A stretch of DNA of 64,000 nucleotides from Melioribacteraceae bacterium (GTDB lineage Bacteria; Bacteroidota; Ignavibacteria; Ignavibacteriales; Melioribacteraceae). The notes beneath the pieces are model-generated. The model was not told the DNA's origin. It searched no databases and worked only from the letters and a program-made list of their open reading frames with translations. Where the stretch lies: assembly GCA_015493615.1 (NCBI GenBank), contig WGCV01000022.1, positions 1-64,000 on the forward strand, written 5' to 3'. The position numbers were made by a program, and so were the translations under genes. Numbering within the stretch: the first letter of the stretch is position 1; each line of letters starts with the position of its first letter. Positions 52,250-64,000 of the stretch are shown one piece after another.

Positions 52250-52480
52250 AATGCGGAAGCAATGTTGTCAACTTAAGAGTTTTTTTCAATTAACCCATTG
52301 CTTCAGCAATGGGATTAGAACGTAAAAGAAATGACGTTAAACCGGTTTACCGGTTTCATTTACCTTTCGGCATATAAACCGGTGAACCGGTTACAGCAAT
52401 TGTGGTTTTCCTTTTACCCACTGATGAATCAGTGGGTTAATGAGAATGAGTTTTCCTTAAGCTGACAACATTGCCGCATT
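52250..52480. repeat. 231-bp nested palindromic element with four internal hairpins
   Basis: The outer arms at 52250-52277 and 52456-52480 are inverted copies (AATGCGG, then CAATGTTGTCA and CTTAAG in both, with one 3-nt indel and one mismatch). Inside are four hairpins: CCCATTGCTTCAGCAATGGG (52294-52313), AAACCGGTTTACCGGTTT (52339-52356), AACCGGTGAACCGGTT (52377-52392) and an ACCCACTGAT/ATCAGTGGGT stem (52416-52437). No gene. It resembles REP/BIME clusters that RAYT transposases act on. Confidence 0.75.
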
Positions 52481-52909
52481 TTGCGGGGATTAGCGAACTG
52501 TGTTACAATAAACTGTTTGCCAGCTGAAAGTTCCGATTGAAAAAATTTCTAATGACAATATTAAGTTTAAATTCTCTAAAGTCCTTTATTTGTAGGGCTT
52601 CTATAGATTATTCTTTTTGTCTCGGATTGGTCAAGTCGGGAAATTTAATAAACAATTTATATCCCTTTTTTTGAAAGTAGAATTTTACAACTATAATTTT
52701 TTGGAATATAATTTAAGAATAACGCTATCTGAATTTTGAGCAAACAGGAAAGCGAACATAAATTATAAAAATAATTTCCGAAAAACTGCTTTGAAAAAAT
52801 CCAAAAACATCGTACATTTAAAAAATTAAAAGAGAGGCGAATTTTAATGAGGGATATAAGTTGAAAGTAATCCCGGAAATATTTTATTCCACTATCCGCG
52901 AGGGAATCC

Positions 52910-53089
52910 ATGATTAAAGCAATTAGGGAGATTGGAGAATACGCTCTTGCAAGAAGCGGGAAAAGCGTTGAAAATCCTCTTGAAATTTTAGTTGATAATC
53001 CGGCAAACCGGCAAACGAGAAATATTCTTTTTATCAAAGTTAAAAGCGAAGGCGAAAATCTTTTTATAAATTTTAATTATAAAATCTAA
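52910..53089 (+). pseudogene. Orphan N-terminal fragment of a cas8b (TM1802/Csh1) gene
   Basis: ATG at 52910 opens a 59-residue frame beginning MIKAIREIGEYALARSGKS and continuing NPLEILVDNP and ILFIKVKSEGENLFINF before a TAA. This matches the expected N-terminus of TM1802-type Cas8b proteins, including the IGEY motif; the intact cas8b starts 8 bases downstream with its own IGEQ equivalent. The fragment is about 43% G+C in a hand-counted 60-base line, against 25-30% in two lines of the intact cas8b. It could still be translated as a short peptide. Confidence 0.65.
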
Positions 53090-53097
53090 GGATTGCT

Positions 53098-55026
53098 ATG
53101 CTTAATTCATTATTACAAATAGGGGAACAATTATTTAATTCGGACGATTATGGTCCAAATTATCTCATATTCTATGAGCCAAAACTTAATAATAAGAAAG
53201 AACATCACTATGTTCTCGAAATAGTAATTAATTGCGACGTAGGAAAAATTATTATTGATAAATCGCAATTAAAAAATTATGATAAACAAGCCTACATAAA
53301 ACTAAAAAATTTAACTCTCAGCGGTAATACTAAAAAATTTTATGTAACGGCATCTTTCGATAAAATCAAGCAAATTGCAATTTCATTTTGGGGTAAAAAT
53401 TTTGACGGAAAGTCACAACTTTTGGAAGAAATTAACAATGTATCGCCTGAATTAGATGATTCGATTTTTGTAAATGCGATAAAATGTATCTCCGAGTTAC
53501 CAGAATTTTCAGGTGTTTTTGATAAGAAAATCATTAACGAAAAAATTAATCTTGCAAAAAACGAAGAAATAGTTCTAGTTACCGTCGCCATAATAAATAG
53601 CGAACTTGGAATAACGCAGTCTGTTAATCTCGGAGCGTTAGAAGGTTACGCAGAATTCCTTGAAAAAAAATTATTATCAACAGACGGCGGTAAAAAAGGA
53701 ATTAACTATGTAAACGGAGCATTTTCAGAAAATGTTGATACGCCTCAATTTTTAAGCAGATATAACCTGAATTATTTGTTTGTTACAACAACCGTCAATT
53801 CCCTTAATAATTTTAAGAAGAAGAACGCAAAGAAAAATTATCAAATTGATACGACAGCCAAATTTTACTTGGAAATCGCATCTAAATACGTATTAAACAA
53901 CTTGCGAACAACGATTGCGGGATTACAGACGGTTATCGTTCCGCGTTTTTCGCCTAAAACGGAAATCGACTTTCTATCGTTAGAACCTAAAATTTCAAAT
54001 AAAATAGACATTGCTTTTACATATAAAGATTTTAGCGAGGAAATTGACGTAAATATCGGCGACGAAGTAGATGAAAATATTTTTTGGGTAAATTTTATAA
54101 CATTTGACTCCGGTCAAAAGAAATATTTTAAGATTTATAATCAAATTACCGACGTTCCTTATTTCCGGTTTCTCAGTATTATTGGAGCTTTCAAAGAAGC
54201 CGGAAATCAATTGTCAAATTATAATAAAGGATTAAGAAATTTCAATTTATACGGATTTTACAAATCAATTCCCGTTAATAAGTCAAAGTCAAACTCAAAA
54301 AATATTAACAAGGCGTTTCTGTTAATACAAGACATTTTGGGAAATAGAAAAATTGACGCATCTGATTTATTCGAAAGTTATTCCGAATTAGTTAGAGCGT
54401 ATTATTATAAAAGAACCGGCGCTTATTCAAACATTAGCGACTTCGGCAAAGATAATTTTGATTACAGAGTAAATGACGCGGTTTTCGCGTACTTAACAAT
54501 TTTTAACGCTTTAATGAAACTCGGAATTTTAGATAATCATAATTTTAATAAAACAAAGGAGGCAACAATGCTTACTGAAAGTCCAAATGATTTCGGAGAC
54601 AAAATCGAAGAGTTTTTCAAAAAAATGGGCTACTCAAATGCGCAAAAAGCTTTATTCTATCTCGGTAGAATGCTAAACGCAATTGCATATCAACAAAGCG
54701 AAAAAAATCACAAAAGCAAGCCAATTCTTAATAAGTTGAATTTTAACGGAATGGACAAAAAGGAAATAATCGATCTTCAATACGATTTATTTGAAAAGGC
54801 GAGGCAATACGGCATTGTTGATAAAATCGAATTTGATAACGCAAGATTTACAGAATATTTTGAATACAACAACTGGAATTTGAAACCCGAAGAATCGCTA
54901 TTTTTTATTTTATCAGGTTATTCCTTCGGGCTATCCGTTGCAAATAAAAAAGTAGAAAATTCAGACAGCCAAGTAGAAGAAGAAATTAACGATGAACAAC
55001 AATTATTTATTAATAAGGAGAACTGA
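53098..55026 (+). CDS. cas8b: Type I-B Cascade large subunit Cas8b (Csh1/TM1802 family)
   Basis: Large subunit that recognises the PAM and holds the R-loop in type I-B Cascade. It has 642 residues, Lys/Asn-rich and without membrane spans; the N-terminus (MLNSLLQIGEQLFNSDDYGP) and the C-terminal helical region (KIEEFFKKMGYSNAQKALFY, later FFILSGYSFGLSVANKK) fit the TM1802 family. Family identity rests mainly on these ends and on position upstream of cas7 and cas5. The last 152 codons can be translated separately (see the Cas11 entry). The gene is markedly AT-rich. Confidence 0.85.
   Translation: MLNSLLQIGEQLFNSDDYGPNYLIFYEPKLNNKKEHHYVLEIVINCDVGKIIIDKSQLKNYDKQAYIKLKNLTLSGNTKKFYVTASFDKIKQIAISFWGKNFDGKSQLLEEINNVSPELDDSIFVNAIKCISELPEFSGVFDKKIINEKINLAKNEEIVLVTVAIINSELGITQSVNLGALEGYAEFLEKKLLSTDGGKKGINYVNGAFSENVDTPQFLSRYNLNYLFVTTTVNSLNNFKKKNAKKNYQIDTTAKFYLEIASKYVLNNLRTTIAGLQTVIVPRFSPKTEIDFLSLEPKISNKIDIAFTYKDFSEEIDVNIGDEVDENIFWVNFITFDSGQKKYFKIYNQITDVPYFRFLSIIGAFKEAGNQLSNYNKGLRNFNLYGFYKSIPVNKSKSNSKNINKAFLLIQDILGNRKIDASDLFESYSELVRAYYYKRTGAYSNISDFGKDNFDYRVNDAVFAYLTIFNALMKLGILDNHNFNKTKEATMLTESPNDFGDKIEEFFKKMGYSNAQKALFYLGRMLNAIAYQQSEKNHKSKPILNKLNFNGMDKKEIIDLQYDLFEKARQYGIVDKIEFDNARFTEYFEYNNWNLKPEESLFFILSGYSFGLSVANKKVENSDSQVEEEINDEQQLFINKEN
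54568..55026 (+). CDS. cas11b: Predicted Cas11b small subunit from an internal start in cas8b
   Basis: An in-frame ATG at codon 491 of cas8b is preceded by AAAGGAGG with 5-base spacing, the best ribosome-binding site in the locus. It would give a 152-residue helical protein (MLTESPNDFGDKIEEFFKKM at its start), the size of Cas11 small subunits. In type I-B, I-C and I-D systems independent translation of the small subunit from within the large-subunit gene has been demonstrated; here it is inferred from the site. Confidence 0.8.
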   Translation: MLTESPNDFGDKIEEFFKKMGYSNAQKALFYLGRMLNAIAYQQSEKNHKSKPILNKLNFNGMDKKEIIDLQYDLFEKARQYGIVDKIEFDNARFTEYFEYNNWNLKPEESLFFILSGYSFGLSVANKKVENSDSQVEEEINDEQQLFINKEN

Positions 55027-55027
55027 A

Positions 55028-56053
55028 ATGGGAGAAATTATTAAAAACAACTCGGATTTTTTGTTTCTTTACGAAGCGATTCTTTCAAATCCAAACGGCG
55101 ATCCCGATCAAGAAAACCGCCCGAGAATGGATTACGACACAAAAACAAATTTGGTTACGGATGTCAGGCTAAAAAGATTTATTCGGGATTATCTAAGCGA
55201 TAACGGCGAAGAAATTTTTGTTGATATGGAAAGCGATTCCAAAGTTTCAATGGACACCAAAATGCAAATTGAAGTGAACAAAATTCTTTCAAAAGAAGAA
55301 AATGTTGATGCAATATTTGAAGGATATCCCGAATTAAAAGAGAAATTTTTACACTTATTGCCACAAGTGCAAAACGGACTTTTTGACGAAGAGAAAAAAC
55401 ATGAAATATTTAAAAATGTCAAAAAAGATAAAGAACTCTCAACCTTTATTTTAATACAACTTGTAAAAAAATACTTTATTGACGTTAGAATGTTTGGCAG
55501 CGCTTTTGCGGTGGAAGGATTTAAAAAACCGTTCACCGGGGCAATTCAAATAAATTGGGGTTATTCTTTACATCCTGTTGAATTGGTTAAATCGGATACT
55601 ATCGTAACTATTATGAACGACGAGGAAAGCACTTTCGGTAAGGATTATAGGCTCTATTACAGCTTAATAGCCTTTAACGGAACTATTAACAAAAATGCCG
55701 CTAAGACTACCGGACTTATGGAAAAAGATAAAGAAAAATTTATCGATGCGGTATGGAACTCTATCCCGTCAAATCCTACTCGTTCGAAACTCAATCAATA
55801 TCCGAAATTATATTTGGAGATTGTTTATAATGAGAATTTTTCGAACGGTTATTTCGGAGATCTAAGACAATATATTAATGTAAACGTTAAGAAAAATGAA
55901 AGCGGCGAGGAAGTCAGCATTAGAAAGTTTTCCGATTTGGAGCTTGATTTCAGCCCTCTTGTGAATTTAATAAAAGAAAACAAAGGCGAAGACAAACCAA
56001 TTAAAAAAGCAATAATAAAAACAAGTCAAGATATTAAATTAAACTTGGATTAA
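55028..56053 (+). CDS. cas7: Type I-B Cascade backbone protein Cas7 (Csh2)
   Basis: Forms the helical filament on the crRNA spacer. It has 341 residues from the ATG at 55028, chosen because AAGGAG stands 7 bases upstream and the family N-terminus begins with FLFLYEAILSNPNGDPDQEN. An earlier in-frame ATG (54992) would read through the cas8b end. Further family stretches are DVRMFGSAFAVEG and FTGAIQINWGYSLHPVE. It starts one base after the cas8b stop. Confidence 0.93.
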   Translation: MGEIIKNNSDFLFLYEAILSNPNGDPDQENRPRMDYDTKTNLVTDVRLKRFIRDYLSDNGEEIFVDMESDSKVSMDTKMQIEVNKILSKEENVDAIFEGYPELKEKFLHLLPQVQNGLFDEEKKHEIFKNVKKDKELSTFILIQLVKKYFIDVRMFGSAFAVEGFKKPFTGAIQINWGYSLHPVELVKSDTIVTIMNDEESTFGKDYRLYYSLIAFNGTINKNAAKTTGLMEKDKEKFIDAVWNSIPSNPTRSKLNQYPKLYLEIVYNENFSNGYFGDLRQYINVNVKKNESGEEVSIRKFSDLELDFSPLVNLIKENKGEDKPIKKAIIKTSQDIKLNLD

Positions 56054-56055
56054 CT

Positions 56056-56838
56056 ATGGAAATCTTAACTTTCGATATTGTCGGTAAATTTGCCCATTTC
56101 AGGAAGTATTACTCAAACTCTACGGCATTATCGTTTACGTTGCCACCGAGAACAACCGGTATGGGAATACTTGCGGGAATGCTCGGGAGGGAGAAAGATT
56201 CATATTATGAAGACTTTTCGTCCGATAAATTAAGAATTACCGTTTCGCTTCTTACTTCCGTAAAGAAATCTTTTCACAGATTGAATTATTTGAAAATCGA
56301 AGGTGAAAAAGATTTCAGGGGTGGACACAAAGACGGCCATGTTCAAACTCCGTTTGAAGTTGTAACGCCAATTGATTTACGAAAAGGAACGCTAAAATAT
56401 CGCGTGTTTTTATCTTATTTTGAAAACGGCAAAGACGTTTTTCAACAAATAAAAGATAAAATAACGCAGCGCGATTTTCATTATTCGTTATCGTTGGGAA
56501 CGGCGTTTTTCGGAGCGACGATTGTAAATCCGCATTTTTACTCCGACGATAAAATAACTGAAAAATATTCCGAAGACAAACTTGTTGAATTTGATTCTTC
56601 CGTCGATAGCGAAAAAGTTGGCAACATTGCTTTTGATGCCAACGAAGTAAAAGATTTTGTGATTGAAGAGGAACAATTGCCAGCCGATTTTAAGGAAAAT
56701 TTCGATAGGGAAGTCGTGAAATTTATCAGAGTTCTTTTTATCGACGGCGGGAAAAAATTACCTGTAAAATATACAGGTAAATACTATTCAATAAATAATG
56801 AACAAGGGAACGTAATTAACATTGCTTTTTGGGAGTAG
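56056..56838 (+). CDS. cas5: Type I-B Cascade protein Cas5
   Basis: Caps the 5' handle of the crRNA. It has 260 residues of the Cas5h type: the N-terminal RAMP strand and glycine motif are FDIVGKFAHFRKYYSNSTAL, then PPRTTGMGILAGMLG. HDGHVQTPFEVV-like and YFENGKDVFQQIKDKI segments follow. Two bases after cas7, overlapping the spacing region of cas3. Confidence 0.9.
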   Translation: MEILTFDIVGKFAHFRKYYSNSTALSFTLPPRTTGMGILAGMLGREKDSYYEDFSSDKLRITVSLLTSVKKSFHRLNYLKIEGEKDFRGGHKDGHVQTPFEVVTPIDLRKGTLKYRVFLSYFENGKDVFQQIKDKITQRDFHYSLSLGTAFFGATIVNPHFYSDDKITEKYSEDKLVEFDSSVDSEKVGNIAFDANEVKDFVIEEEQLPADFKENFDREVVKFIRVLFIDGGKKLPVKYTGKYYSINNEQGNVINIAFWE

Positions 56839-56840
56839 AG

Positions 56841-59216
56841 ATGTTCTACTCCCATTCTAAAAAAATTTCCGAGAACGAATACTTCGGCGTAAAAACAATA
56901 GCCGAACATTCCGCGAACGTTATCAAAAACTCGCTGGATTTATTTTCCAAACAAGTTAATTCCCAAAATTTCTCAAACGACGAAATCACCGAGTTAATTT
57001 CCACCATTGCCAAATTGCACGATTTGGGGAAATATACTCCTGATTTTCAAAATTATCTCTTAAAAAAGGACGATTATGACAACGAACTGAAAAACCACGC
57101 TCGAATAGGCGCTTTTGTCGCGTTCAATTCTCTGATTAATAAGTCGTTCCAAATGGCGTTTATCGCGTATTTTATAATTAAGAATCATCATTCCAATCTT
57201 AAAAAATTAATGGACGACACTTTCATTAGAAAGGACAGAACCGACCTTGCTTTCTTATCTGAAACATTTAGCAAACAAAAGGAAAAGTTAATCGGACTAA
57301 CAATGGAAATTGAACAAGAATTGAATTTTCAGAATTTGTCCGATTTTCTTGCGCTCCCTTTTGAATTTTCAAGTATGTCGCAAAAAGAGATAAGAAAAAA
57401 CGTGAAAAAATTATTTATCCAGTCCAAAAATTGTGAAAACTACTTTCTGATAAATTATGTTTTTTCAATTTTAATTGAATCGGATAAAATAGACGCATCG
57501 GGTAACATCATTTACAAAAGGAAATCATTAGATAAGAATTTGGTCGATAACTATATTAATTATAATTTTCGAAATACAGATAACTTAAAATCCGAAATAA
57601 GGAGAAACGTAAAAAATTTTGTCAACGAAATAGACTTGAATAAAGATAAAATTTTTACTTTAACCGCGCCAACGGGAATTGGGAAAACATTAACCGGGCT
57701 TGATTTTGCGCTTGAATTACGCGAAAAAATTTCCAGAACAACAGGCGAAATTCCTCAAATTATTTATTCGTTGCCTTTCGTAAACATAATTGAGCAAGCA
57801 ATCGACGTTTATAATAGAGTCTTTGAAGATAAAGCAAAAATTTTAGTTCACTACCAAAATTCTAACGGCGAAATAAATTCATCCGTCGATTACGCACAGA
57901 GTTTAATGTTATTGGAAACTTGGCAATCCGATATAATCATAACTTCGTTCGTCCAATTAGTTGAAACCATAATAACCAATAAAAATAGAGCGATTAAGAG
58001 ATTTTCACATCTTGCAAACGCAATAGTAATTTTAGATGAAATTCAAGCGATAGAAATCGAAAAGTTGCCTCTAATCGGTTCGGTTATTTATTATTTGTCA
58101 AAATTATTAAATACAAAATTTTTGTTAATGACAGCGACAAAACCTTACATTTTTGAATTAGCCGAAAATTTGGTGAATGAAAAAATTAACGCCGTTGAAC
58201 TTTTGCCTAATCACAAACGGATATTCAACTTATTTAAGAGAACCAAAATAATTTCAGAGATAAACAAAACTCTTGAAGATGAAGATTTTATTAATCTGTT
58301 TTTCGAAAAATGGGACGGAAAGTCTTCCGCCCTTATAGTCTTAAACACTGTTAACAGATCTTTGTGTATATACAAAAAGTTAAAAGAAATATTAGATAAA
58401 AACGAAATTGATAATCCCATTTTTTATTTATCAACCAATATTTTGCCCGCTCACAAATTGGAAATTATCAATAAAATCAAAGCGTCTCTCAAGAACGGCG
58501 AAAATCCAATCTTAGTTTCAACGCAAACTGTTGAAGCCGGCGTTGATATTGATTTTGATATTGCTTTCAGGGATATCGCTCCGATAGATTCAATTGTTCA
58601 AGTCGCCGGAAGAGTTAATCGTTACGGGGAAAAAGCAAATTATTCCAAAGTTTATATTATAAATTTCGGCGATTGCAAAAAAATATACGGAAGCATTGTC
58701 GAAAATATTGTGAGCGCAATTTTGCAAAAAGTAAAAGAAATTCCGGAAGAAAATTATTTAGACCTCATAGAAGAATATTTTCTTGAAATAAAAAATAGAG
58801 TCGGCGAGTACGCCCTTGATAAGTCAAAAGCAATCTGGGACGCAATTTGTAAATTAAATTATACGAGTTTTTCGGATGATGAAATTAGTATTTCTTCATT
58901 TAAATTAATCGACGATAAAATAAATTACATTCAGGTTTTTATCGAATACGACGAAAAAGCATCAAATGCCTTAAAAATATTCAACGATTATTTACTTGGC
59001 GAACGAAGTAAAGAAGATTACCAAAAAATAAAATCGATTTTTTATTCGTACGTATTAAAAATTCCCAAATACTATATTGAATTAGTAAATTACCTTACAA
59101 TACAAAACACGGAAGTTTATTTAATTGACAAAGAAATGAAAGACGATTATTATGATTATAATTTCGGATTTAAAAGAACAATTTGCGAAACTGAATCACA
59201 GATTGAATTTATTTAA
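56841..59216 (+). CDS. cas3: CRISPR-associated nuclease-helicase Cas3
   Basis: Degrades target DNA after Cascade binding. It has 791 residues from the ATG at 56841, preferred over an in-frame TTG at 56829 that would overlap cas5. The HD nuclease domain is complete: H23 (AEHSANVI), H60-D61 (LHDLGKYTPD), then NHARIGA and KNHHSN. The SF2 helicase shows APTGIGKT with K282, ILDEIQ with D399, VSTQTVEAGVDIDF and QVAGRVNRYG. Both activities should be functional. Confidence 0.95.
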   Translation: MFYSHSKKISENEYFGVKTIAEHSANVIKNSLDLFSKQVNSQNFSNDEITELISTIAKLHDLGKYTPDFQNYLLKKDDYDNELKNHARIGAFVAFNSLINKSFQMAFIAYFIIKNHHSNLKKLMDDTFIRKDRTDLAFLSETFSKQKEKLIGLTMEIEQELNFQNLSDFLALPFEFSSMSQKEIRKNVKKLFIQSKNCENYFLINYVFSILIESDKIDASGNIIYKRKSLDKNLVDNYINYNFRNTDNLKSEIRRNVKNFVNEIDLNKDKIFTLTAPTGIGKTLTGLDFALELREKISRTTGEIPQIIYSLPFVNIIEQAIDVYNRVFEDKAKILVHYQNSNGEINSSVDYAQSLMLLETWQSDIIITSFVQLVETIITNKNRAIKRFSHLANAIVILDEIQAIEIEKLPLIGSVIYYLSKLLNTKFLLMTATKPYIFELAENLVNEKINAVELLPNHKRIFNLFKRTKIISEINKTLEDEDFINLFFEKWDGKSSALIVLNTVNRSLCIYKKLKEILDKNEIDNPIFYLSTNILPAHKLEIINKIKASLKNGENPILVSTQTVEAGVDIDFDIAFRDIAPIDSIVQVAGRVNRYGEKANYSKVYIINFGDCKKIYGSIVENIVSAILQKVKEIPEENYLDLIEEYFLEIKNRVGEYALDKSKAIWDAICKLNYTSFSDDEISISSFKLIDDKINYIQVFIEYDEKASNALKIFNDYLLGERSKEDYQKIKSIFYSYVLKIPKYYIELVNYLTIQNTEVYLIDKEMKDDYYDYNFGFKRTICETESQIEFI

Positions 59217-59246: not shown

Positions 59247-59909
59247 ATGCAAATACCTTTAGCTTACGTAAAGTTTCCGGAAGTTCAGTTACATCAGCAT
59301 TACGGGCATAAATTACGCGGATATTTCGGGAACTTGTTTAAGGAAAAATCTCCTTTGCTCCATAACCATTACGACGACGGCAGATTGCGTTACGCTTATC
59401 CTCTTGTGCAATATAAAGTTATCGATAATGTGCCGATGCTTGTCGGGTTCGGAGAAGGCTCGGAGCTTTTAATTGAATTGTTTACCCGGATTAAGAGACT
59501 TGAATTGGGCAATTTTGTGGTGAATATATATTCAAAAAATTTAAAGAGAAAAATTTACGAACCGGAAATATCGAAGGAGAATTTTAATCGTTACAAGTTT
59601 AAATCGTTGTGGATGGGCTTAAATCAAAACAATTTTAAAAAGTTCTCGTTATTGCTGCCGGGCGATGAACAAACACTATTTTTGTCGAATATTCTTGTAG
59701 GAAATATTTTAAGTTTTTTTAAAGGCGTCGGTTATAAAGCGGAGGGAAAAATCAGCGCGCTTCCCAAAGTAGAGGCAAAAACCACAATGTTTAAGAATAA
59801 TAAAATGACGGCGTTTTCAGGGGAGTTTTATACTAACGCGGTTTTACCGGATTACGCGGGTCTCGGGAAGTCGGTTTCGCGAGGATTCGGGACGATTAAA
59901 AGTTTTTAG
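59247..59909 (+). CDS. cas6: CRISPR RNA endoribonuclease Cas6 (Cas6b-like)
   Basis: Cuts the repeat in pre-crRNA, leaving the 8-nt 5' handle. It has 220 residues. Candidate catalytic histidines H39 and H41 lie in LLHNHYDDG, a position and HNH spacing like the active histidines of archaeal Cas6b; the C-terminal glycine-rich loop GLGKSVSRGFGTIKSF is typical. It lies 30 bases after cas3 and is the last gene before the repeat-filled gap. Confidence 0.88.
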   Translation: MQIPLAYVKFPEVQLHQHYGHKLRGYFGNLFKEKSPLLHNHYDDGRLRYAYPLVQYKVIDNVPMLVGFGEGSELLIELFTRIKRLELGNFVVNIYSKNLKRKIYEPEISKENFNRYKFKSLWMGLNQNNFKKFSLLLPGDEQTLFLSNILVGNILSFFKGVGYKAEGKISALPKVEAKTTMFKNNKMTAFSGEFYTNAVLPDYAGLGKSVSRGFGTIKSF

Positions 59910-60347: not shown

Positions 60348-61385
60348 ATGATTTTATCAATCGACACTTACGGCGCTTACCTTCACGTAAAGGACGATAT
60401 GTTTGAAGTCCGCATAAAAAAAGAAGATGAAACAATCAGGAGAAAAATTGCGCCTGCAAAATTAAACGCAATTCATCTTTCCAAAGGAGTAAGCTTAAGC
60501 GTTGACGCAATCGAACTTGCCACGATGCACAACATTGAAATTCTTTTTATGCAGTTTGAAGGAACGCCTTACGGAAGGGTTTGGTCGAGTAAGCTCGGAA
60601 GCACTACAAAAATCAGAAAAAGCCAACTTATCGCAAGCGTAACAAATAGCGGAACGGAGTTCGTAAAGGAATGGATTGTCGCTAAAATTTCCAATCAGAA
60701 AGATTTTCTTAAAAAGCTGAAAAAACACAGGGAGGATAAAGCGGCGCTTTTTGTAAGCGCGATAAACAAAATCGAAAAAAAAGCGGACTCGGTTAAAAAA
60801 CTATCCGGAATCAATATTTATGAAATTGCCGATGAATTACGCGGCTATGAAGGTTCGGCGGGAAAAGAGTATTTTCGAGTTTTGGGACAAATACTTTCCG
60901 AGGAATACCGGTTCGACAGCCGCTCGTTTCGTCCCGCAAAAGATCCGTTTAATTCATTTCTTAACTATGCTTACGGCGTGCTTTATTCTAAGATTGAACG
61001 CGCTTTATTGATTGCGGGCGTCGATCCCTATCTCGGTTTTCTGCATCGGGACGATTATAACCAGAAATCGATGGTGTTCGATTTTATCGAGCCGTACAGA
61101 GTTTGGGCGGACGAAACGGTTTTTAAACTCTTTTCCGCCAAAAAAGTAAATAAAAGTCATACGGAAAAAATTTCCGGAGGATTTTCATTGAATAAAAACG
61201 GAAAAATATTGCTAATGGAATCAATAAATAAATTTATGGAAGAAGATAAAGTAAAATACAAAGGGCGGAATCAGTCAAGAAACAACATTATTCAGTTAGA
61301 CGCGCATTCGTTTGCCGCCAAACTGATTAAGAAAAAATTAAAACCGGAGGATATAGAAAATTATGATTTGCTGGGTGATGTATGA
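60348..61385 (+). CDS. cas1: CRISPR integrase Cas1
   Basis: Metal-dependent integrase that inserts new spacers. It has 345 residues. The catalytic residues are visible as E168 (GYEGSAGKEYF), H233 (LGFLHRDDYNQ) and E248 (FDFIEPYR). Type I-B-like sequence (MILSIDTYGAYLHVKDDMFE). It heads a separate cas1-cas2-cas4 unit and overlaps cas2 by 23 nt. Confidence 0.96.
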   Translation: MILSIDTYGAYLHVKDDMFEVRIKKEDETIRRKIAPAKLNAIHLSKGVSLSVDAIELATMHNIEILFMQFEGTPYGRVWSSKLGSTTKIRKSQLIASVTNSGTEFVKEWIVAKISNQKDFLKKLKKHREDKAALFVSAINKIEKKADSVKKLSGINIYEIADELRGYEGSAGKEYFRVLGQILSEEYRFDSRSFRPAKDPFNSFLNYAYGVLYSKIERALLIAGVDPYLGFLHRDDYNQKSMVFDFIEPYRVWADETVFKLFSAKKVNKSHTEKISGGFSLNKNGKILLMESINKFMEEDKVKYKGRNQSRNNIIQLDAHSFAAKLIKKKLKPEDIENYDLLGDV

Positions 61386-61653
61386 CATCAAAGACGATAG
61401 GGCAAGAACGAAGATTTCGAAAGCTTGCGAAAAAGCGGGACTTAACAGAGTGCAGTATTCGGTTTTTCTCGGAACGCTTGAAAAGTCTTTTTTAGATGAG
61501 TTGCAGATAAGAATCGAGGAATTGATAAATGCGGAAAAAGATTCGGTTTATATATTCCCGATGAGCAAAAACGAACTTAGGGAAACCGTTTTATTGGGGC
61601 AGGCGTTCGATAAAAAAATGATTACCGATGAAGTAAAACAATTATTTATGTGA
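61363..61653 (+). CDS. cas2: CRISPR adaptation protein Cas2
   Basis: Bridges the Cas1 dimers in the adaptation complex. It has 96 residues with a ferredoxin fold: MICWVMYDIKDDRARTKISK carries the conserved Asp8, then LNRVQYSVFLGTL. The ATG at 61363 gives a normal N-terminal strand; a later ATG at 61378 would delete it. It overlaps cas1 by 23 nt. Confidence 0.95.
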   Translation: MICWVMYDIKDDRARTKISKACEKAGLNRVQYSVFLGTLEKSFLDELQIRIEELINAEKDSVYIFPMSKNELRETVLLGQAFDKKMITDEVKQLFM

Positions 61654-61660
61654 GAAATAA

Positions 61661-62248
61661 ATGGAAACGGAAAGTTTATCGATAACGCCCTCGCATATTA
61701 TCGAATATTTGTATTGTCCGCGATACATTTATTTTATGTATGTGCTTTCAGTTCCTCAGCGCGAAGAACTTTACTATAAAGCAATGAAAGGAAGAGAAAT
61801 TCATCAGAGGAAAACAGTTGTAAATCCGGAGTATTTGAGGAAAAAAATAAAAGTAATTTCAAAGGAAGTCGAAGTGTATTTGACCGGAAAAAATTTGCGG
61901 GGCATTGTTGACGAGGTATTGTTTTTATCTGATGGAACGGCAAGTCCGCTTGACTATAAATTTGCTCGCTACAATGAGAGAATTTACAAAACTTACCATA
62001 CGCAAGCGCATTGTTATGCTAAGTTAATAATGGAAAATTATAAAGTGGGAGTAAAAAAAGCGTTTCTTGTATTTATCCGGAGTAAGAATAAAGTGGTTGA
62101 ATTCGATATAACAGATAAGGGAATAGCGAAAGTAGATTTATATATCAATGAAATCGGCGAAATAATCGAGAATAACAGATTCCCGAGAGGAACAAGCTCA
62201 AAATCGAAATGCCTTACCTGTACATATCGGAATATTTGTGTCAGATAA
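61661..62248 (+). CDS. cas4: CRISPR adaptation nuclease Cas4
   Basis: RecB-like, Fe-S nuclease that trims prespacers and selects the PAM. It has 195 residues. The cluster ligands are C19 (YLYCPRYIYF) and C184, C187 and C193 (KCLTCTYRNICVR); the RecB nuclease motifs are GIVDEVLFLSDG and PLDYKFARYNE, then TYHTQAHCYAKL. It is placed after cas2, whereas most type I-B loci have cas4 before cas1. Confidence 0.95.
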   Translation: METESLSITPSHIIEYLYCPRYIYFMYVLSVPQREELYYKAMKGREIHQRKTVVNPEYLRKKIKVISKEVEVYLTGKNLRGIVDEVLFLSDGTASPLDYKFARYNERIYKTYHTQAHCYAKLIMENYKVGVKKAFLVFIRSKNKVVEFDITDKGIAKVDLYINEIGEIIENNRFPRGTSSKSKCLTCTYRNICVR

Positions 62249-62449: not shown

Positions 62450-64000
62450 GTTTTTGAATGAAGTCCAATAAAACAAGGATTGAAACTTGCGGGAATAGAC
62501 CGGAAAACGGCGTCCGTCAACGGGTTTTTGAATGAAGTCCAATAAAACAAGGATTGAAACTATGCATCGGCAGATTATGGGCGTAAAAGACCCAAAGTTT
62601 TTGAATGAAGTCCAATAAAACAAGGATTGAAACTTGCGGGAATAGACCGGAAAACGGCGTCCGTCAACGTTTTTGAATGAAGTCCAATAAAACAAGGATT
62701 GAAACCGACAGAGACCGTTTTTGAGACTTACACAAGCGTCGCGTTTTTGAATGAAGTCCAATAAAACAAGGATTGAAACTGGTCGTGTGATTGAAGTTCT
62801 ATCGTAGCATTACGCAGTTTTTGAATGAAGTCCAATAAAACAAGGATTGAAACCGGATGTTGATGTGCGTTCCATTTTCGATTGCTGTTGTTTTTGAATG
62901 AAGTCCAATAAAACAAGGATTGAAACAGGAGAGAGGAAAAGGAGAGAGAAATGAAAAGAATTGTTTTTGAATGAAGTCCAATAAAACAAGGATTGAAACT
63001 GGATAAGGGGAAAGCCTATATCGAAGCGATAAGAGTTTTTGAATGAAGTCCAATAAAACAAGGATTGAAACTTTTTCATCTCCTCTCTCAAGGATCCGAC
63101 GCTATCAAGTTTTTGAATGAAGTCCAATAAAACAAGGATTGAAACTACAACTTTTTAAGCTCTAATGGCTGATTGGAGTTTGTTTTTGAATGAAGTCCAA
63201 TAAAACAAGGATTGAAACTCCGGTGTTAAGTGGCGTTTTTCTATTGGCAGAAGTGTTTTTGAATGAAGTCCAATAAAACAAGGATTGAAACGTGTTAATA
63301 ATTCAGTTTAGTGGTAGTTTTCGGCACTGTTTTTGAATGAAGTCCAATAAAACAAGGATTGAAACAAATTGAGGTTCATAAGTTCAGAGACAATGTCGTT
63401 TGTTTTTGAATGAAGTCCAATAAAACAAGGATTGAAACGAAAGGGCTGCGTATTCTTCGCTTGCCGTCCAAAAGGTTTTTGAATGAAGTCCAATAAAACA
63501 AGGATTGAAACAACCACGCAAAGAAAAGCGGAATCCAATCGTTTTCTGTTTTTGAATGAAGTCCAATAAAACAAGGATTGAAACCCCATACAGAACAATG
63601 GTAAGCCGCACCGGAAGTTGTTTTTGAATGAAGTCCAATAAAACAAGGATTGAAACTCCAATGCCTTTAACTCAGCCTCTACAGCCGCAATGTTTTTGAA
63701 TGAAGTCCAATAAAACAAGGATTGAAACCGGCTGCTTGATAAGTGTCATAGAACCAGCCGCCTAGTTTTTGAATGAAGTCCAATAAAACAAGGATTGAAA
63801 CTTGATTATCTGCAAAATGCCTTTGAGCTTCCGGAGGTTTTTGAATGAAGTCCAATAAAACAAGGATTGAAACATCTCGGCGTTTGCCTCTTTTTTCTCC
63901 TCGTATTTGTTTTTGAATGAAGTCCAATAAAACAAGGATTGAAACATAGAAAATGGAATTGATTCTTTTTTTATTTGGTTTGTTTTTGAATGAAGTCCAA
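62450..64000 (+). CRISPR. Type I-B CRISPR array, at least 22 repeats, continues past the window
   Basis: The repeat is 37 nt, from GTTTTTGAATGAAGTCC to AATAAAACAAGGATTGAAAC. Twenty-one full copies, all apparently identical, begin at 62450, 62524, 62597, 62669, 62743 and so on to 63909; the 22nd (63982) is cut by the window end. The 21 spacers are 35-37 nt. The terminal ATTGAAAC would be the 8-nt crRNA 5' handle, so transcription is on the plus strand. Spacer 1 (62487-62523) and spacer 3 (62634-62668) are near-identical. Repeats show no degeneration, which fits an active array. Confidence 0.99.

What the first reader, a model, noticed from the sequence alone, without database searches (positions are those of the whole stretch)
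52910..53097. Orphan cas8b N-terminal piece directly upstream of the intact cas8b
The 59-residue frame matches the start of TM1802-type Cas8b and stops 8 bases before a complete, much more AT-rich cas8b. The simplest story is replacement of an ancestral cas8b (perhaps with neighbouring effector genes) by recombination, leaving the old 5' end. Spot counts of single lines give about 43% G+C in the fragment, 42-45% in cas6 and cas1, but 25-32% in cas8b and cas3. cas7 and cas5 lines are 42-48%, so a clean four-gene swap is not proven.
Basis: partly seen in the sequence, partly recalled or inferred. Interest (0 to 1): 0.6.

Follow-up and report, generated by a model that had tools for sequence, protein, structure and literature searches.

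The report
Scar of a swapped CRISPR module
A bacterium swapped the four target-destroying genes of its CRISPR immune system for a distant relative's set, and the first 59 codons of the discarded gene still sit in front of the new one as a small open reading frame that a sister species also keeps.

Summary
Window 52910-53089 (+) encodes 59 aa that match the first ~50 positions of Cas_TM1802/Cas8b, and a complete cas8b starts 8 bases later. The replacement story holds up when tested. Trees and topology tests show that cas8b, cas7, cas5 and cas3 form one imported block, grouping with distant members of the phylum. cas6, cas1, cas4 and the CRISPR repeat stayed with the host genus and family (Melioribacteraceae). 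The fragment belongs to the discarded type: 47% identity to an Altarchaeum Cas8b and 71% over 31 residues to a family member's cas8b start, with no real match to the intact cas8b beside it. This is a four-gene in situ exchange whose 5' breakpoint lies inside the old cas8b.

New here: a sister species has the same arrangement, the frame stayed open with fewer amino-acid changes than chance (P about 0.003), and the leader before it is strongly conserved. I infer that the old promoter, leader and first codons were kept as the translation entry point of the new operon. Effector-module exchange is known; the retained, constrained scar is the unusual detail.

The parts
52790..52820 (+). Candidate promoter of the operon: TTTG-N19-TACATTTA (resembles the Bacteroidota-type TTTG...TAnnTTTG), same spacing in sister species G004
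   Evidence: Sequence and comparison; consensus scan also gives TTGAAA-16-TACATT here. Consensus match only.
52847..52948 (+). Strongly conserved leader plus first 13 codons of the fragment: 3 differences in 102 nt from G004, against 19 in the next 129 nt. Contains two short frames (5 codons from 52847; 18 codons from TTG 52861, stop TAA 52915-52917) that overlap each other and the fragment start
   Evidence: Fisher P 0.003; no RNA fold signal, no Rfam family over threshold
52910..53089 (+). Relict 5' end of the ancestral (Altarchaeum/G062-type) cas8b, 59 codons, now a separate small frame; its stop overlaps the cas8b ribosome-binding site (TAAGGA)
53098..55026 (+). cas8b of the imported effector module (642 aa, intact)
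   Evidence: tree and AU test
55031..56053 (+). cas7 of the imported module
56056..56838 (+). cas5 of the imported module
56829..59216 (+). cas3 of the imported module; the 3' breakpoint lies between here and cas6 (30-nt gap)
59247..59909 (+). cas6b, host-family lineage (retained)
60348..62248 (+). cas1, cas2, cas4, host lineage (retained adaptation module)
   Evidence: cas2 tree unresolved; cas4 resolved to the genus only
62450..64000 (+). CRISPR array; continues to contig position 64820 (33 repeats of 37 nt); repeat closest to family member G021

Best explanation
In an ancestor shared by this bacterium and its sister species G004, the effector genes of a resident type I-B operon (cas8b-cas7-cas5-cas3) were exchanged in place for those of a distant type I-B lineage. 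cas6, cas1-cas2-cas4 and the array stayed. The 5' breakpoint fell inside the old cas8b, after about codon 55, and the 3' breakpoint fell between cas3 and cas6. (These steps are shown by comparison.) The old promoter, leader and first 59 codons now precede the new genes. Inferred: the 59-codon frame is translated and acts as a leader cistron. Ribosomes start at the old, conserved start site, stop at the TAA that overlaps the cas8b Shine-Dalgarno sequence, and re-start 8 bases downstream on the new cas8b. This would explain why the frame stayed open and constrained while its product, an N-terminal helix plus beta hairpin of a vanished protein, probably has no role in the new effector complex. 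Confidence is 0.85 for the exchange and its scar, about 0.4-0.45 for the leader-cistron part.
For: Fragment is a Cas8b N-terminus. It scores 50.8 bits/47% with Altarchaeum Cas8b, 35.4 bits with family member G021's, and 13.9 bits with its own intact neighbour over a 10-residue chance stretch. Same-family genome G062 has a cas8b start 71% identical over 31 residues. Trees: window+G004 cas7, cas5 and cas3, and window cas8b, fall with G099/G165/G226 and G043 (support 99-100 for cas8b, cas7 and cas3; for cas5 100 with G099/G165/G226, 87 with G043), while cas6 (97/95), cas1 (98/98) and cas4 (96/97) fall with genus or family members. AU tests reject the family clade for cas8b/7/5/3 (all p < 1e-5) and the donor-like clade for cas6 (p 0.0016), cas1 (p 5e-6) and cas4 (p 0.02). 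Repeat is 33/37 identical to G021, against 27/37 for G099 and 25/37 for G226. Donor-type genomes G099 and G226 show no such frame directly upstream of cas8b. Sister G004 has the same fragment, 8-nt gap and cas8b start. 8 amino-acid changes among 20 substitutions against 13.8 expected (P 0.0026; codons 14-56 alone P 0.008). dN/dS 0.26, CI 0.10-0.67. Leader 3/102 against 19/129 changes.
Against: No genome held here shows the ancestral intact cas8b in this genus: G002's contig begins at cas6, and G001 and G003 show no match to Cas8b, the fragment or Cas6. The closest relative within the family (G062) is cut off at a contig end. The selection test rests on two species and about 60 codons, and dN/dS (0.26) is higher than for the other cas genes (0.03-0.10), so constraint is relaxed. 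Translation and coupling are not shown. The leader also contains conserved short frames with no explanation.
Confidence: 0.85

Rival explanations
1. Inert debris: the exchange happened as described, but the 59-codon frame has no role and is simply decaying slowly.
For: dN/dS 0.26 is higher than in the other cas genes, and the 3' end of the frame diverges most, with a 9-nt indel. The chance of no stop arising by drift alone is 0.63, so an open frame by itself is weak evidence.
Against: Amino-acid changes are rarer than expected (P 0.003; P 0.008 without the first 13 codons), the indel is in frame, and the stop overlaps the cas8b Shine-Dalgarno in both species.
Confidence: 0.35
2. The fragment arrived together with the effector module: the break happened in the donor lineage, whose module was then transferred whole.
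For: Fragment and cas8b share low G+C (32% and 31%).
Against: The fragment's closest relative is in the host family (G062, 71%). Donor-type genomes G099 and G226 lack it (G165's contig holds only 95 bp upstream).
Confidence: 0.08
3. Duplication or truncation of the resident cas8b itself (a partial tandem copy of its own 5' end).
For: Position directly upstream of cas8b; both begin with an IGE-type motif common to Cas8b N-termini.
Against: Fragment matches the neighbouring Cas8b far worse (13.9 bits) than Altarchaeum (50.8) or G021 (35.4) Cas8b; the profile of the intact type scores it 2.1 bits, that of the other type 23.7.
Confidence: 0.02
4. A dedicated small protein made from a Cas8b N-terminal region, with a function of its own (for example binding Cas5 or crRNA, or regulating the complex).
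For: Reading frame constrained between two species.
Against: Known in only two species. In the Altarchaeum Cas8b model the region is a helix plus a beta hairpin, not an obviously closed domain. No other free-standing copy was found in 391 class genomes, 146 relatives, or by pattern scans of the GTDB and viral contigs.
Confidence: 0.1

Closest known systems
In situ effector-module exchange next to a fixed cas6/adaptation module (Koonin & Makarova 2019, PMC6452270; [quoted passage not shown]
   Same: cas6, cas1-cas2-cas4 and the array stay, effector genes are replaced by a distant variant of the same subtype; trees of the two modules conflict
   Different: Here the 5' breakpoint lies inside the discarded cas8b and left a 59-codon frame that two species keep; I found no paper describing such a retained scar, in a library that lacks most subscription journals
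Cas8b of the TM1802 family (PF09484): Candidatus Altarchaeum locus L048 and Melioribacteraceae G062/G021
   Same: Fragment aligns to its first ~50-60 residues
   Different: The remaining ~90% of the protein is gone
Translationally coupled leader cistrons in bacterial operons (own knowledge)
   Same: Short frame whose stop overlaps the next gene's Shine-Dalgarno, 8 nt from its start codon
   Different: Would be derived from a discarded homologous gene; coupling not tested

Membership tests
Cas8b N-terminus (PF09484 Cas_TM1802) | Profile match over the curated cut-off, starting at position 1 | tested here: met
   25.9 bits against cut-off 25.1, positions 1-49; G004 copy 30.2 bits. In the six-frame search the window copy scores 23.0, so the margin is thin
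Cas8b N-terminus (PF09484 Cas_TM1802) | Complete large subunit (~600 aa) | tested here: not met
   59 aa only; it is a relict, not a working Cas8b
In situ effector-module exchange | Effector-gene trees conflict with cas6/adaptation-gene trees | tested here: met
In situ effector-module exchange | cas6/adaptation genes and repeat stay with the host lineage | tested here: met
   cas6, cas1, cas4 trees and repeat 33/37 to G021; cas2 unresolved
In situ effector-module exchange | A close relative still carries the old module at the same site | tested here: inconclusive
   Family members G057 and G021 carry other modules with the same cas6 lineage, but no genus member with the old module is held
Translationally coupled leader cistron | Short frame ending within the next gene's ribosome-binding site, conserved | tested here: met
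   TAAGGAtnnnnATG-type junction in both species
Translationally coupled leader cistron | Translation of the leader drives translation of the next gene | not testable with these tools
   Needs reporter fusions or ribosome profiling

The most novel reading that the evidence does not exclude
After the swap, the truncated start of the old cas8b was kept by selection as a leader cistron (or small protein) that sets expression of the foreign effector genes, so that module exchange works by capturing the resident promoter and translation start.
Probability: 0.4. Interest if true: 0.5.

Novelty: new member of a known kind. Interest (0 to 1): 0.4.

Why it matters
Effector-module exchange is usually inferred from conflicting trees alone. 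Here the breakpoint itself is visible as a sequence scar in two species, which most simply dates the event before their split and shows that the incoming genes were placed under the old promoter and leader. If the frame is a leader cistron, it suggests how foreign CRISPR effector genes can be put to use at once after a swap.

Tried and rejected
The G+C argument: the fragment is as AT-rich as cas8b. Self-duplication of cas8b: rejected by N-terminal profiles. Frameshifted single cas8b: rejected, because the intact gene covers the profile from 1 to 601. Cas-operon self-repression by a CRISPR-like guide aimed at the leader: no spacer or degenerate repeat matches above shuffles. Structured RNA in the leader: fold z-scores 0.1-0.2, no Rfam match over threshold. 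Copies of the fragment on plasmids or viral contigs: none (the plasmid hit was a chance match in a secretion gene). Copies of the leader in other genomes: only G004; other hits are 22-44 nt chance matches. PDB by sequence: no match to the intact Cas8b; the model of Altarchaeum Cas8b resembles type I-C Cascade large-subunit chains, which fits the family but says little about the fragment.

Full report
WHAT IS THERE. The frame 52910-53089 (+) is real: 59 residues, ATG start, TAA stop, 8 bases before the ATG of cas8b at 53098. It matches the first 49 positions of the 602-position Pfam model Cas_TM1802 with E 5.7e-6, and two PADLOC Cas8b models from position 1. The neighbour covers the same Pfam model from 1 to 601 (E 3.4e-50), so it is complete and needs nothing from the fragment. 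Downstream lie cas7, cas5, cas3, cas6b, cas1, cas2, cas4 and an array of 33 repeats from 62450 to contig position 64820. Apart from the fragment this is an ordinary type I-B operon.

The fragment is 32.2% G+C with GC3 25%, against 30.8% for cas8b, 33.2% cas7, 36.4% cas5, 31.0% cas3, 38.3% cas6, 38.8% cas1, 37.8% cas2, 35.2% cas4 and 39.5% for the histidine kinase upstream. The fragment is not compositionally set apart from cas8b.

WHO THE FRAGMENT IS. The genome belongs to Melioribacteraceae: the sister-genus record is titled so, and the family sits in Ignavibacteriales. Against the intact cas8b beside it, the fragment gives 13.9 bits over a 10-residue chance stretch. Against Candidatus Altarchaeum Cas8b it gives 50.8 bits (47% over 53 columns), and against family member G021 35.4 bits. 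A profile of the intact cas8b's own type scores it 2.1 bits; a profile of the other type scores it 23.7. In family member G062 a cas8b start at a contig end is 71% identical over 31 residues. The fragment is therefore the start of a different Cas8b from the one now present.

WHAT WAS SWAPPED. I built trees of each Cas protein with the loci found in relatives and in the phylum. Cas8b, Cas7, Cas5 and Cas3 of the window (and Cas7, Cas5, Cas3 of sister G004) fall with G099 (same order), G165 and G226 (same phylum) and, more deeply, G043 (same family). Family members G021 and G057 carry quite different effector proteins; G057's are 49-65% identical to Altarchaeum's. Cas6 and Cas1 of the window fall with G002 (same genus) and with G021 (and G057 for Cas6); Cas4 falls with G002. 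Topology tests reject the family clade for all four effector proteins (p < 1e-5 each) and reject the donor-like clade for Cas6 (0.0016), Cas1 (5e-6) and Cas4 (0.02). Cas2 is unresolved. The CRISPR repeat follows the retained side: 33 of 37 positions shared with G021, against 27 with G099 and 25 with G226. Its limits lie just after the first ~55 codons of the old cas8b and between cas3 and cas6. Because G043, a family member, also carries a deep branch of the imported type, such modules have probably moved more than once in this family.

THE SISTER SPECIES. G004 (same genus, 84% identity in the fragment) has the same arrangement: a 62-codon frame, stop, 8 bases, and a cas8b start of the same type (MLNSLLQIGEQL...), before the contig ends. 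The flanking histidine kinase and the other cas genes diverge to a similar degree (dS 0.35-1.03), so the arrangement was most simply inherited from a common ancestor. Two differences matter. First, within the first 56 codons there are 20 substitutions but only 8 amino-acid changes, against 13.8 expected (P 0.0026; without the first 13 codons P 0.008). dN/dS over the whole frame is 0.26 (bootstrap 0.10-0.67), looser than other cas genes (0.03-0.10). Second, the leader from 52847 and the first 13 codons differ at 3 of 102 positions, while codons 14-56 differ at 19 of 129 (Fisher P 0.003). The stop of the frame overlaps the cas8b Shine-Dalgarno (TAAGGAT) in both species, although the frames differ in length by three codons.

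HOW IT MOST LIKELY WORKS. Shown by comparison: an exchange in place, with the old 5' end kept. Inferred: the old promoter (TTTG-N19-TACATTTA at 52790-52820, same in G004), leader and start codon still begin the operon's expression, and the 59-codon frame carries ribosomes to the new cas8b start. I put this leader-cistron reading at about 0.4-0.45 and plain debris at about 0.35. A separate small protein is less likely, since in a model of the Altarchaeum Cas8b the region is a helix and a beta hairpin, not an obviously closed domain (mean pLDDT 75).

AGAINST WHAT IS KNOWN. Koonin and Makarova (PMC6452270) describe this class of event: the adaptation module with the array and/or cas6 stays fixed and the effector genes are shuffled in situ. 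The 2025 classification lists it as a recurrent trend (PMC12669027). The event is therefore a new example of a known kind. A scar that preserves the breakpoint inside the discarded gene and is kept by two species was not found in the papers searched, but the library lacks most subscription journals.

LIMITS. No genus member with the old module is held; G002's contig starts at cas6, and G001 and G003 show no match to Cas8b, the fragment or Cas6. The selection test uses one pair of species. Expression is not tested.

Noticed in passing
window 52259-52474: A ~215-bp palindromic element with 19-nt near-perfect terminal inverted repeats; some 20 near-full-length and further partial copies in this genome (70-88% identity), absent from the same place in sister G004. 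Looks like a MITE-type family that inserted upstream of the operon.
   Followed up: partly
window 52847-52917: Leader with two overlapping short frames (5 codons; 18 codons LKVIPEIFYSTIREGIHD) that chain into the fragment by stop/start overlaps; the 18-codon frame has a single, synonymous change from G004. No homologue, RNA fold or spacer match found.
   Followed up: partly
window 62487-62523 and 62634-62668: The first and third spacers of the array are the same sequence over their first 30 nt, i.e. a duplicated spacer at the cas-side end of the array.
   Followed up: no
window 52340-52440 (-): Sub-threshold Rfam LOOT RNA match (24.4 bits against 46.4 needed) inside the palindromic element; probably an effect of the palindrome.
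   Followed up: no
L111 (G002:C119) 1-663: Contig of a third species of the genus begins exactly at the cas6 start codon, i.e. at the module boundary; may reflect strain variation in the effector module in that sample, or chance.
   Followed up: no
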